A stretch of 36,558 nt of DNA, taken from an uncultured Clostridia bacterium. GTDB taxonomy: Bacteria > Bacillota > Clostridia > Oscillospirales > Oscillospiraceae. A program made the translations under genes and the position numbers. The stretch spans positions 1-36,558 of the forward strand of contig CAMEER010000012.1 in NCBI GenBank assembly GCA_945915065.1, read 5' to 3'. The notes beneath the pieces were generated by a model. The model saw only the letters and a program-made list of their open reading frames with translations, was not told the DNA's origin and did not search any database. Numbering within the stretch: the stretch's first letter is position 1; every line of letters starts with the position of its first letter. Positions 961-8,371 of the stretch are shown here, piece after piece.

Positions 961-1036
961 CGCGGGATAGAGCAGTTGGTAGCTCGTCGGGCTCATAACC
1001 CGGAGGTCGGGGGTTCAAGTCCCTCTCCCGCAACCA
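961..1036 (+). tRNA. Initiator tRNA-fMet (CAU), target of the integrated element
   Basis: The anticodon loop is CTCATAA. Two initiator hallmarks are visible: base 1 is C facing A72 (unpaired acceptor end), and three G-C pairs stack directly on the anticodon loop (GGG/CCC). CCA is encoded at 1034-1036. The 3' part from base 992 onward is the left copy of the 50-bp att repeat, so the gene is rebuilt intact by the element's insertion. Confidence 0.95.
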
Positions 1037-1041
1037 ACAAA
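992..1041 (+). repeat. attL, left 50-bp att repeat inside tRNA-fMet
   Basis: Identical to 8322-8371 base for base. It starts at the second base of the anticodon-loop region (CTCATAA) and runs through the T arm, the CCA end and five further bases. The first flanking bases differ on both sides (G vs A on the left, A vs G on the right). Confidence 0.95.
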
Positions 1042-1074
1042 ACAGCCGTTTTCATTGCGAAAGCGGCTGTTTTT
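1040..1074 (+). terminator. Element-borne terminator behind tRNA-fMet
   Basis: A 14-bp stem with one G-T pair (1040-1053 with 1059-1072, loop ATTGC) followed by T. It replaces the host terminator that insertion moved to 8369-8400, and it stops tRNA transcription before the convergent integrase gene. Confidence 0.85.
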
Positions 1075-1116
1075 CTAACTTTTTTGGCAAATTCAAAAAG
1101 TGGCAAAAGAAAATAA

Positions 1117-1134
1117 TTCAACTTTAATTCAACT
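1117..1134 (+). repeat. Left arm-type repeats TTCAACT (candidate Int/Xis sites)
   Basis: Two TTCAACT copies (1117-1123, 1128-1134) lie 11 bp apart, about one helical turn. The same heptamer recurs in the same orientation at the right end of the element. This fits arm-type integrase binding sites; the role is inferred. Confidence 0.5.
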
Positions 1135-1146
1135 CGTCCTCAAAAT

Positions 1147-2388
1147 TCAAGCCTTTTTCAAAAATACGTCTGCGAGAATGTCGGCGTTCTTCTGGTCGGC
1201 GGCTTCCATTACATGAGCATAGATGTTCGCCGTTGTGCTGACCTGTGCGTGGCCTAATCGCTTGGAGATTGACACACTATCCATACCGTTAAAATAAAGT
1301 GTTGATGCCATTGTATGCCGGAATGCGTGTGGATTGATGTGCGGAAGATTGTATTTCTTGCTGAATTTCGCCAACCAGTCTGTCACGCTGTCCGGGTGCA
1401 TGGGCTGTCCGTTATCCTGCGAGAATACGAAGCCTTGATAGTTGTAGTATTCACCAAGGCGCAGCCGTTCGGAGTTTTGCCACATTTGATATTGACGCAG
1501 TAGCCGCATTGTTTCCGCAGGAACGGAAATATAACGGTTTGACTGTTCTGTTTTGGGCGTATCCTCATAGATGCCGCGATCGGGCGAATAGAGAATATTA
1601 TTGCAGATATGAAGTCTATTCGCTTCAAAATCAACGGCAGACCATTTCAAGCCTAATATTTCACCACGCCGTGCGCCGGTCATGATAAGCAGTTCTGTAA
1701 TTGTCCGCCACTTGATTATATTTTTCTTGCTTCCCGGCTTGTCCTCCTCCGCTTGTTCCACTTCTATCTGCTCTTTCTCCAATGCTTCACGGATAGCAGC
1801 GACTTCTTCCGGCTGGAAATAGTTGACCTCTTTCTTGCTGACTTTTGGCAAGGTCGCACGGCTTGCAGGGTTGAACGGGATTAGCTGCTCTTTACACGCT
1901 TGGTCAAGAATTGTGGAAATCAGCCTGTGATGCTCTACAATCGTTTTTGCAGACAAGCCGCCGCCTGTGCGCTTATTCTGTCCCGGCTTGGCAAGGGATA
2001 AATAAAGGCTGTTCAGTTGGTCGGTACGCAGTTCGCGCAGCTTGGTATGTCCGATGGCGGGATAAATGCGGGTGGATAGTTCCTTGTAACGGACAATCGT
2101 TGAATGCTTCACACCGTTCTGCTCTTTCAGGTCAATAACATAGTTGGCGTATTCCTCAAATTTCAAACGGCTGTCAGAGGTCATACCCTCTTTACATTCC
2201 TTTTCAAAAGTCGCGGCGAAAGCCTCGGCTTTTTTTCTTGCGCTTTTTTCCGTCCATGTGGGCGAAACCTCAAATGTTGCCGTCCACGGTTTAAGCTGTT
2301 TACCGTCCGCACCACGTCCACGGTGAACGCGGATAGAATACGAAACCAGCTTGCCGGACTTGTCCCGGCGTTCTTGCAAGTTAGCCAT
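1147..2388 (-). CDS. int: Tyrosine site-specific integrase
   Basis: A 413-residue tyrosine recombinase that would insert and excise the element at the tRNA-fMet att site. Layout: N-terminal arm-binding region (about 1-70), SAM-like core-binding domain (about 75-180), and catalytic domain (about 190-410). Catalytic residues are all present: R240 in TGARRGE, K279 in the TPKTEQS hairpin, H354 and R357 in HAFRHT, H380 in LGH, and nucleophile Y390 in ANIYAHV. A charged 25-residue stretch (about 203-227) sits just before the first catalytic Arg. The gene is transcribed toward attL and starts 8 bases inside the end of the repressor gene; its ribosome binding site (AAAGGGGG) lies in that gene, so the two are probably translationally coupled. 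Family confident. Confidence 0.96.
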   Translation of the reverse strand: MANLQERRDKSGKLVSYSIRVHRGRGADGKQLKPWTATFEVSPTWTEKSARKKAEAFAATFEKECKEGMTSDSRLKFEEYANYVIDLKEQNGVKHSTIVRYKELSTRIYPAIGHTKLRELRTDQLNSLYLSLAKPGQNKRTGGGLSAKTIVEHHRLISTILDQACKEQLIPFNPASRATLPKVSKKEVNYFQPEEVAAIREALEKEQIEVEQAEEDKPGSKKNIIKWRTITELLIMTGARRGEILGLKWSAVDFEANRLHICNNILYSPDRGIYEDTPKTEQSNRYISVPAETMRLLRQYQMWQNSERLRLGEYYNYQGFVFSQDNGQPMHPDSVTDWLAKFSKKYNLPHINPHAFRHTMASTLYFNGMDSVSISKRLGHAQVSTTANIYAHVMEAADQKNADILADVFLKKA

Positions 2389-2932
2389 TGTCAGAAGCCC
2401 CCTTTCGCTTGAATAAGTGCTTTAACTGTAATTCAACGAAGTCACACACTTCATTTTCAAAGGCATTCATTTCTTCGAGGGAAAGTTGAATTGAAACATG
2501 ATTATGAGAGATTGTATAACCATCTCGCACTGCTTTTAGTACGTCCTCAACGGCAATTTTACCGTGTGCAGAAACAGGTGGCGAACATAATTTGATTTGA
2601 TAATCGTTCAGCTGAGCAAAGGCAGATAGGCCACTCAATAATAAGTCTCCTTCGTGCTGGGCTTGGGAGATGATAGAACGACACTTTTCTGCATTATTCT
2701 TAAAATCAGAAAAACCTAAAAGCCATTCAATGCTGTACTGCGGAAATCTATCGACAATAATCTCCGCCGTTGTTTGTGTGACATTTGCCTTTCCTTGAAC
2801 CATTGCGGATATAGATTGCTGTGATATTCCAGTTTCCACTGCAAGTTGATTTTGCTTGATTCCCGTTTCGCTAATAATCTGTTTCAACCTTTCGCAGCGT
2901 TTAGCGTTAATTTCTTTCTTCGGCCTTGACAT
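2381..2932 (-). CDS. CI-like HTH repressor of the element
   Basis: A 183-residue protein with an N-terminal Xre/CI-type helix-turn-helix (about residues 20-75: KQNQLAVETGISQQSISAMV). The C-terminal half is of unknown fold and has no LexA-type Ser/Lys protease motif that I can see. A longer reading with seven extra residues exists, but the ATG at 2932 has a clear GGAGG (complement of 2938-2943) at good spacing. It is divergent from the xis-like gene and upstream of int, the position of the master repressor (Stl or CI type) in PICIs and temperate phages. Derepression without a LexA-type domain would fit control by a helper-phage protein, as in SaPIs, but that is inference. Confidence 0.85.
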   Translation of the reverse strand: MSRPKKEINAKRCERLKQIISETGIKQNQLAVETGISQQSISAMVQGKANVTQTTAEIIVDRFPQYSIEWLLGFSDFKNNAEKCRSIISQAQHEGDLLLSGLSAFAQLNDYQIKLCSPPVSAHGKIAVEDVLKAVRDGYTISHNHVSIQLSLEEMNAFENEVCDFVELQLKHLFKRKGASDNG

Positions 2933-2972
2933 TTTGCACCTCCAATTAAACAATTAAAACTTTAAAAACTGT

Positions 2973-3020
2973 TTGTAACTTTCATGTTTATACTGTATCA
3001 TGTAATCAGACGAAAGTCAA
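2973..3020. promoter_or_regulatory. Overlapping divergent promoters of the element switch
   Basis: Rightward: TTGTAA (2973-2978), 17 bp, TATCAT (2996-3001). Leftward: TTGACT (complement of 3015-3020), 17 bp, TACAGT (complement of 2992-2997). The two -10 boxes overlap, so the promoters are mutually exclusive in space. The ACTGT motif occurs twice here and may be part of the operator. Confidence 0.6.
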
Positions 3021-7961: not shown

Positions 7962-8116
7962 TGGCATACAAACGAATTTATGACTATCCTCCCGAACAGC
8001 GCGAGGAAGTCAGAGCCAAACGCGCAGAGCAGGAACGCCGTTACCGTGCCAGGCGCAAGGCACAACGCACGGAGTTTGTCGAACACTTCAAAAAGCTGTT
8101 GGAACAAGGCAAATAA
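7961..8116 (+). CDS. Small basic protein, last gene of the element operon
   Basis: 51 residues, about a third Arg/Lys, mostly one predicted helix (EQREEVRAKRAEQERRYRARRK). A longer reading from 7922 exists, but the ATG at 7961 has a GGAGGG ribosome binding site and is coupled to the preceding stop by one base. Charge suggests nucleic-acid binding; no family recognised. Confidence 0.65.
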   Translation: MAYKRIYDYPPEQREEVRAKRAEQERRYRARRKAQRTEFVEHFKKLLEQGK

Positions 8117-8120
8117 ACAG

Positions 8121-8146
8121 AGCCGCCCTGCAATAGTGGGGCGGCT
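8121..8146 (+). terminator. Weak hairpin ending the element's rightward operon
   Basis: AGCCGCCC (8121-8128) pairs with GGGCGGCT (8139-8146). The following bases are TCTCTGTGC, so there is no clean U-run. Confidence 0.5.
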
Positions 8147-8186
8147 TCTCTGTGCTTATATCTGGAACATTTTGGACTGTTATGAG

Positions 8187-8224
8187 TTCAACAAAAATTC
8201 AACTCCGTTATGAAAAGTTCAACT
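8187..8224 (+). repeat. Right arm-type repeats TTCAAC(T)
   Basis: TTCAAC copies at 8187-8192, 8198-8204 and 8218-8224, spaced 11 and 20 bp. The orientation and the 11-bp step match the left-end pair at 1117-1134. They lie about 100 bp inside attR, where arm-type integrase sites are expected. Confidence 0.5.
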
Positions 8225-8232
8225 AATTTATG

Positions 8233-8311
8233 AAACGATGCAAAACGCATTTTTCAAAAAAAGCAGTAATACCAATACTTTGCGGCACATTATAAAACGA
8301 TGGAAAACGCA
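8233..8311 (+). repeat. Pair of 17-bp repeats AAACGATGSAAAACGCA next to attR
   Basis: Copies at 8233-8249 and 8295-8311 differ at one base (C/G). They flank an AT-rich spacer and stop 10 bp before attR. They may be Xis or second-class integrase sites. The ~200 bases between the last gene and attR hold only this pair, the TTCAAC repeats and the hairpin. Confidence 0.5.
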
Positions 8312-8321
8312 CGAATTTGAA

Positions 8322-8371
8322 CTCATAACCCGGAGGTCGGGGGTTCAAGTCCCTCTCCCGCAACCAACAAA
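8322..8371 (+). repeat. attR, right 50-bp att repeat
   Basis: Identical to 992-1041. The 5' half of the tRNA is not rebuilt here, so this copy is a tRNA-fMet 3' fragment only. Confidence 0.95.

What the first reader, a model, noticed from the sequence alone, without database searches (positions are those of the whole stretch)
992..8371. Compact 7.3-kb phage-satellite-like island in the initiator tRNA gene
A perfect 50-bp att repeat, a complete tyrosine integrase, a CI-like repressor opposed to an xis/replicase operon, a self-contained replication protein and a TerS-like gene follow the layout of PICIs (SaPI type), yet all conjugation and virion genes are missing. The element is half the size of a typical SaPI, and I do not recognise it as a described family from gut Clostridia.
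Basis: partly seen in the sequence, partly recalled or inferred. Interest (0 to 1): 0.88.

Follow-up and report, generated by a model that had tools for sequence, protein, structure and literature searches.

The report
Small phage satellite in tRNA gene
A 7.3-kb stretch of DNA parked in a tRNA gene of an uncultured, probably gut-living bacterium looks like a tiny parasite of bacterial viruses that copies itself and marks its DNA for loading into another virus's particles; it belongs to a wider, apparently undescribed group, but its transfer has not been shown.

Summary
A perfect 50-bp repeat brackets a 7,330-bp island in the initiator tRNA gene: tyrosine integrase, divergent repressor and xis, P4-type primase-helicase, TerS-like protein, small ORFs; no relaxase or virion-structure gene found. 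The satellite reading is supported by independent evidence. The TerS matches 17 of 50,697 phage records; 16 are Streptococcus satellite phages. Twenty-seven further loci carry the unknown helical protein "o9" (window 7332-7961): small islands, many in tRNA or tmRNA genes, and three circular genomes. Counting the window, 17 of 28 have the TerS; 7 of 28 also have a true large terminase, with no capsid gene seen. One, MT836267.1, closes into an 11.3-kb circle and most likely comes from a DNase-treated virus-particle preparation. Another genus carries a 7,333-bp island in the same tRNA with 54% identical integrase and conserved arm-type sites. An origin-like inverted-iteron element follows the primase. 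Not shown: induction, a helper, particles. I read it as a new variant of PICI-like satellites with its own packaging cassette (TerS, sometimes TerL, Zn-ribbon, o8, o9). Confidence in the mechanism about 0.8; o9's role is open.

The parts
961..1036 (+). initiator tRNA-Met (CAT), integration target; stays intact after insertion
   Evidence: ARAGORN; initiator features read (hallmarks recalled)
992..1041 (+). attL core, 50 bp
1042..1074 (+). element-borne hairpin + T run that would replace the tRNA's terminator
   Evidence: read; hairpins at the same place in L095 and L172 (sequence printed)
1117..1134 (+). two integrase arm-type-like sites (TTCAACT, 11 bp apart)
   Evidence: same spacing and place in L095 and L172
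1147..2388 (-). tyrosine integrase, 413 aa
   Evidence: PF00589 E=2.4e-25; phrog_1 E=6e-67; 54% and 74% identical to integrases of L095 and L172
2381..2953 (-). CI/Stl-like repressor, 190 aa
   Evidence: HTH_3 E=4.5e-8; 43% and 34% identical to L095 and L172
3040..3252 (+). xis/AlpA-like excisionase, 70 aa
   Evidence: weak alone (E=0.018); 47% (47 aa) and 55% (53 aa) identical to the same-placed gene in L095 and L172
3249..3677 (+). small HTH-like protein, 142 aa
   Evidence: phrog_2113 E=4.5e-15, function unknown
3667..6072 (+). P4-type primase-helicase, 801 aa
   Evidence: phrog_1829 E=2e-135; TIGR01613 above cut-off
6081..6164 (.). candidate replication origin: inverted TGTGCAAAATGTGCA-type iterons around an AT-rich stretch
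   Evidence: I3; z=-5.2, 0 of 200 shuffles as good; same element after the primase in 4 of 9 relatives printed (L035, L037, L161, L168), same plan with another repeat word in L172 and L083 by eye, one side only in L036, not seen in L084 and L088
6250..6627 (+). small terminase subunit (TerS), 125 aa
   Evidence: phrog_2538; 16 Streptococcus satellite phages among 17 phage records hit; family HMM E=2e-25 and 2e-23 on two of them; relatives lie directly before a TerL
6640..6885 (+). small ORF o7, 81 aa, unknown
   Evidence: no family
6886..7314 (+). o8, 142 aa, Cys-rich
   Evidence: 40% identical to L035:7992-8456
7332..7961 (+). o9, 209 aa, all-helical protein, hallmark of the family
   Evidence: model pLDDT 86, pTM 0.64; no Pfam or PHROG family at E<=0.05
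7961..8116 (+). o10, 51 aa, basic
   Evidence: ORF only
8187..8224 (+). three arm-type-like sites (TTCAAC)
   Evidence: all three in L172; in L095 two, with the third inverted
8228..8310 (+). two near copies of TTATgAAACGATGnAAAACGC (8228-8248, 8290-8310), candidate Xis sites
   Evidence: read; similar pair in L172; function not tested
8322..8371 (+). attR core, 50 bp

Best explanation
The island is a PICI-like phage satellite. Shown: att repeat, gene set, conserved integrase arm-type sites, origin-like element, kinship of its TerS and o9 with other small elements. Inferred: the repressor keeps it silent until an infecting or induced helper phage lifts repression; integrase plus Xis excise it between the 50-bp repeats; the primase-helicase replicates the circle from the inverted-iteron element behind its own gene; the TerS then steers helper (or, in relatives, own) TerL to satellite DNA, which is loaded into helper capsids, probably by a headful mechanism, and on delivery the integrase puts it into the initiator tRNA gene. 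o9 (with o8) most likely acts in the packaging or particle-redirection step, because it sits with TerS/TerL whether the element is an island or plasmid-like.
For: Perfect att and layout. TerS: 17 phage records hit, 16 annotated Streptococcus satellite phages, and Javan586 (8,441 bp) has the order int - DNA-binding - HTH - replication - primase - TerS - further ORFs. Relatives put the homologous TerS next to a true TerL (PF04466 E=5e-34 and 8e-35, PF17288). Islands with perfect repeats in other genera: L095 in the same tRNA, 49 bp, 7,333 bp; L172 in tRNA-Arg, 48 bp, 6,838 bp. Arm sites conserved at both ends in all three. Origin-like element. MT836267.1 (L117): 124-bp terminal repeat, i.e. circular 11,334 bp, matching k-1 of the assembler setting (--maxk 125) of a DNase-treated VLP study of Mexican children (record country Mexico); ten of its ORFs scanned one by one show no structural PHROG.
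Against: No induction, circle, particle or transduction was observed for this copy. No HK97-type capsid gene in the 81%-complete host MAG, so no resident helper of that type is visible. TerS alone is weak by HMM (E=3e-4). The VLP origin of MT836267.1 is inferred: 'MT83' does not occur in the main text of either paper. Gut VLPs also hold plain bacterial DNA, notably from Oscillospiraceae (PMC12946183, passages), so presence in VLPs alone would not prove directed packaging. L117 is a distant relative (o9 28% identical) with another replication gene. 11 of the 28 o9 loci lack a detected TerS, some being cut contigs. No other same-genus genome is among the 45 of 400 with the primase. The window o9 has no match in the phage collection at E<=1.
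Confidence: 0.82

Rival explanations
1. A decayed prophage that kept lysogeny, replication and TerS genes by chance and is now immobile.
For: Not seen in other same-genus genomes; primase and integrase are of kinds also found in phages.
Against: Ten open ORFs; att repeats identical; the same compact set recurs in other genera and tRNAs; arm sites and origin-like element kept; circular relatives.
Confidence: 0.07
2. An integrative mobilizable element (conjugation hitch-hiker) that uses an oriT only.
For: Integrase, xis, repressor and replication protein also fit such elements; a weak MobT-model hit falls on the repressor's HTH (20 bits against a cut-off of 600).
Against: No relaxase; TerS of satellite kind; TerL in relatives.
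Confidence: 0.05
3. A satellite that only replicates and interferes with phages: TerS and o9 act to block helper packaging rather than to package the element.
For: Many satellites interfere with helpers (PMC6092414, passages); most o9 loci (21 of 28) show no TerL.
Against: A circular relative in what is most likely a VLP data set points to packaging.
Confidence: 0.06

Closest known systems
Streptococcus satellite phages (Javan586, Javan298 and others; satellite prophages of PMC6813308, listing and start of abstract seen)
   Same: Homologous TerS (31% over 87% for Javan586; HMM E=2e-25); similar gene order and size range (records of 8.4-18.1 kb among the 16 hits)
   Different: No significant o8, o9 or TerL homologue among the 15 CDS of Javan586 and 12 stretches of Javan298 compared (its output was cut, but these sections were seen); other hosts
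PICIs of SaPI type (PMC6092414, abstract and passages)
   Same: Specific att site, int, xis, divergent repressor, primase, iteron-type origin plan (detail recalled), TerS, no structural genes
   Different: Smaller (7.3 kb); no capsid-redirection gene recognised; relatives carry TerL; helper and induction unknown
PICMI (Vibrionaceae, PMC10803314, passages)
   Same: Minimal size, int + AlpA-like + primase, no structural genes
   Different: tRNA/tmRNA site, not fis; has a TerS; other hosts
cfPICI (gene content recalled; named in PMC11389934, passages)
   Same: TerS and TerL carried by some relatives
   Different: No capsid or portal family found in the window ORFs or among the families shown for relatives
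P4-like satellites (gene content recalled)
   Same: P4-type primase C-terminal domain (TIGR01613)
   Different: No Psu, Sid or Delta family among the Pfam hits of the ten ORFs; TerS present

Membership tests
PICI (features as listed in the abstract of PMC6092414) | unique, specific attachment site (with own integrase) | tested here: met
PICI (features as listed in the abstract of PMC6092414) | exclusive PICI genes | tested here: met
   by the TerS only: 16 of 17 phage records hit are annotated satellite phages; the other genes are of kinds shared with phages
PICI (features as listed in the abstract of PMC6092414) | conserved replication origin organisation (iterons and AT-rich region by the replication gene; detail recalled) | tested here: inconclusive
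   the plan is present; origin function not shown
PICI (features as listed in the abstract of PMC6092414) | phage-dependent induction | not testable with these tools
   needs a helper and culture
PICI (features as listed in the abstract of PMC6092414) | phage interference | not testable with these tools
   no known interference gene recognised; o9 is a candidate
PICI (features as listed in the abstract of PMC6092414) | specific packaging into phage-like infectious particles | tested here: inconclusive
   only a distant relative, MT836267.1, in a data set that is most likely VLP-derived
PICMI | integration next to fis | tested here: not met
   site is tRNA-fMet
cfPICI | own capsid genes (recalled) | tested here: not met
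   none assigned in the ten window ORFs
P4-like | Psu / Sid / Delta genes (recalled) | tested here: not met
   none among Pfam hits of the ten ORFs
IME | relaxase | tested here: not met
   (one sub-threshold MobT-model hit, on the repressor's HTH only)
IME | oriT | not testable with these tools
   no oriT search available

The most novel reading that the evidence does not exclude
A previously unnamed lineage of capsid-less satellites in gut Clostridia is defined by a packaging cassette (TerS, optional complete TerL, Zn-ribbon protein, o8, o9) that moves between integrated islands and self-replicating circular plasmids; some satellites bring their own whole packaging enzyme, and o9 is a new factor that couples it to a foreign procapsid.
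Probability: 0.45. Interest if true: 0.78.

Novelty: new variant of a known kind. Interest (0 to 1): 0.62.

Why it matters
Satellites are known best from Staphylococcus, Streptococcus, Enterobacteria and Vibrio. This would extend them to common, largely uncultured Clostridia. It gives a hallmark protein (o9) with which to find more, and raises a testable question: why a satellite without capsids keeps a whole terminase. It also suggests that some small circular genomes in gut data sets are satellites rather than phage fragments.
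Full report
Observation. The 50-bp perfect repeat at 992-1041 and 8322-8371 is real, and the left copy is the 3' part of tRNA-Met(CAT) 961-1036. The CGGG/CCCG anticodon stem and the unpaired C1/A72 (read, hallmarks recalled) mark it as the initiator. Between the repeats I take ten open ORFs as genes. Pfam, PHROGs and NCBIfam give an integrase, a CI-like repressor, a weak xis, a P4-type primase-helicase and a TerS-like protein. No relaxase or structural-protein family was assigned; a MobT model touches only the repressor's HTH far below its cut-off. PADLOC gives only weak matches, all but one on the repressor.

Relatives. One scan of GTDB genome contigs with the primase gave three loci. 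L035, from a MAG titled uncultured Oscillospiraceae, has an 89% identical primase in an island beside a tmRNA gene. It carries a TerS (phrog_2538 E=1.2e-6) directly followed by a true TerL (PF04466 E=5e-34, PF17288 E=7e-22), a Zn-ribbon protein, and homologues of window o8 (40%) and o9 (45%). L037 has a TerS 44% identical to the window's. So the window's weak TerS call is carried by a chain of relatives. A tblastn of the window TerS against 50,697 phage records hit 17 at E<=0.01; 16 are named Streptococcus satellite phage Javan..., and the other is MT837364.1, which also has o9. A family HMM finds the TerS in Javan586 and Javan298 at 2e-25 and 2e-23, and Javan586 has a similar order of genes.

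The family. In 300 family genomes drawn by the tool, 10 matched o9 at E<=0.001; one (G160) I dropped after reading it. In 394 order genomes 13 matched the o9 profile at E<=1e-5. Both counts include the window's own genome, and some genomes are in both. With three contigs from IMG/VR, two GenBank scaffolds and the genome contigs I mapped 28 o9 loci, the window included. The L037 copy is marginal (28% over 79 aa, E=0.01 to the window o9), and three others (L169, L172, L174) match it best. 17 of 28 have the TerS; 7 of 28 (L035, L095, L096, L117-L120) have the TerL as well; 11 show no TerS. Another locus (L161) has TerS and a cut TerL but ends before o9. Of 17 loci with a tRNA or tmRNA tested for a repeat, 9 had an exact repeat of 23-49 bp, with spacings of 5.8-9.0 kb in seven and 12.0-12.7 kb in two; two had only 15-17 bp; six had none (three of these six have no o9). 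The nearest relatives are telling. L095 (another genus) sits in the same tRNA with a 49-bp repeat and spacing 7,333, against 7,330 here; its integrase is 54% identical, and it has TerS and TerL but another replication gene (DUF6291 and a RusA-like ORF). L172 sits in tRNA-Arg, 6,838 bp, integrase 74%, with the order int-rep-xis-HTH-primase-TerS-81-aa ORF-o9-like. The primase alone is widespread (45 of 400 genomes at E<=1e-20; 1,220 phage records) and is not diagnostic.

Ends. In these three elements two TTCAACT-type sites 11 bp apart lie 76-82 and 87-93 bp inside attL, and a further set lies about 135 bp before attR (three in the window and L172; two plus an inverted third in L095). This is the layout of arm-type sites of tyrosine integrases (established knowledge). 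Each element also brings a hairpin with a T run just behind the tRNA end (sequence), as if to replace the terminator that insertion removes. In the window as a whole TTCAACT occurs 9 times against 3.4 expected (2 of 100 shuffles reach 9), so it is the conserved placing, not the count, that carries the argument.

Origin. Behind the primase, 6081-6164 holds inverted TGTGCAAAATGTGCA-type iterons around an AT-rich stretch. Its single-strand fold beats all 200 shuffles (z=-5.2). Of nine relatives whose sequence behind the primase I printed, four (L035, L037, L161, L168) keep the same element, L172 and L083 show the same plan with another repeat word by eye, L036 one side only, L084 and L088 nothing evident. 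This fits an iteron origin of PICI type, inferred only.

Circular genomes and particles. MT836267.1 (L117) has a 124-bp terminal repeat, L118 107 and L120 127, so they close to 11,334, 11,122 and 11,605 bp. L117 reads int, BRO-N-like ORF, repressor, xis, primase-helicase, RusA-like, TerS, TerL, Zn-ribbon, o8, o9; ten of its 20 listed ORFs were scanned one by one and none has a structural PHROG at E<=0.001. The record says human fecal, Mexico, scaffold_1807. A study of Mexican children sequenced DNase- and chloroform-treated VLPs and assembled with IDBA-UD --maxk 125 (PMC8361208 and PMC8844717, passages); a 124-bp overlap is k-1 for that setting. I infer that the record is from that study; 'MT83' does not occur in either main text. 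Gut VLPs also carry plain bacterial DNA, prominently from Oscillospiraceae (PMC12946183, passages), so this is support, not proof, of directed packaging. Two members of the scanned set have ParA-like and two have replication-initiator PHROGs; reading their sequences I place these on L118 and L120: plasmid-like forms with the same cassette. No capsid or portal family is among the 25 most frequent families shown for 85 unassigned ORFs of 11 elements (39 Pfam and 102 PHROG families in all, so 14 and 77 rarer ones were not shown). L116 (MT837364.1) is the exception to 'no structural genes': after o9 come a Gp15 and a tape-measure protein.

o9. An alignment of six family sequences gives a fairly confident all-helical model, a long helical hairpin (5-42, 45-91) and a C-terminal bundle, pLDDT 86, pTM 0.64, without a match at E<=0.001 in BFVD or PDB. 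Its place beside the terminase genes suggests a packaging or assembly role; this is inference.

Empty site. Of 16 same-genus loci with at least 1 kb fetched behind tRNA-fMet, none has an integrase close to the window's; two (L020, L023) have other tyrosine integrases there, 26-30% identical. The same right flank was not found behind a tRNA.

Verdict. It works like a PICI by its anatomy and meets two sequence-testable PICI features (specific att site, TerS of satellite kind); the origin plan is present but unproven; induction, interference and packaging remain untested for this copy. Compared with known families it is a new variant: a new hallmark protein, and a terminase cassette that can be complete although no capsid genes are carried. 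The listings showed no description of it.

Noticed in passing
L038 (G000:C47) 8944-9029: A third copy of the att core plus 36 bp of the right-flank terminator on another contig of the same MAG, without the tRNA 5' part: the right end of another element or of another strain's insertion. The same contig also holds 145 bp 94% identical to window 12764-12909.
   Followed up: partly
L194 (G000:C27) 6178-7542: A lone Terminase_3-type large terminase between host-like genes, with no head genes seen nearby by eye.
   Followed up: partly
L116 (MT837364.1) 3994-6736: TerS and o9 followed by a Gp15 and a tail tape-measure protein: a satellite with tail genes, an insertion beside a phage, or a chimeric scaffold.
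   Followed up: partly
L118, L119, L120: Plasmid-like genomes with ParA-like and Rep-like genes and a Xer-like recombinase carrying TerS-TerL-Zn ribbon-o9 (o8 in two of the three); two of the three close into circles.
   Followed up: partly
L036 1932-4820: Related primase on a 4.8-kb contig that ends in a tRNA-fMet piece in reverse orientation, with no integrase or TerS detected; contig cut or different element.
   Followed up: no
L020, L023: Other tyrosine integrases directly behind tRNA-fMet in same-genus genomes: the site is an integration hot spot.
   Followed up: partly
window 8228-8248 and 8290-8310: Two near copies of TTATgAAACGATGnAAAACGC between arm sites and attR, similar pair in L172; possible Xis sites.
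   Followed up: no
L192 7094-7663, L193 8049-8693: Streptococcus satellites have a helix-rich-looking ORF near TerS without significant similarity to o9; possible functional counterpart.
   Followed up: partly
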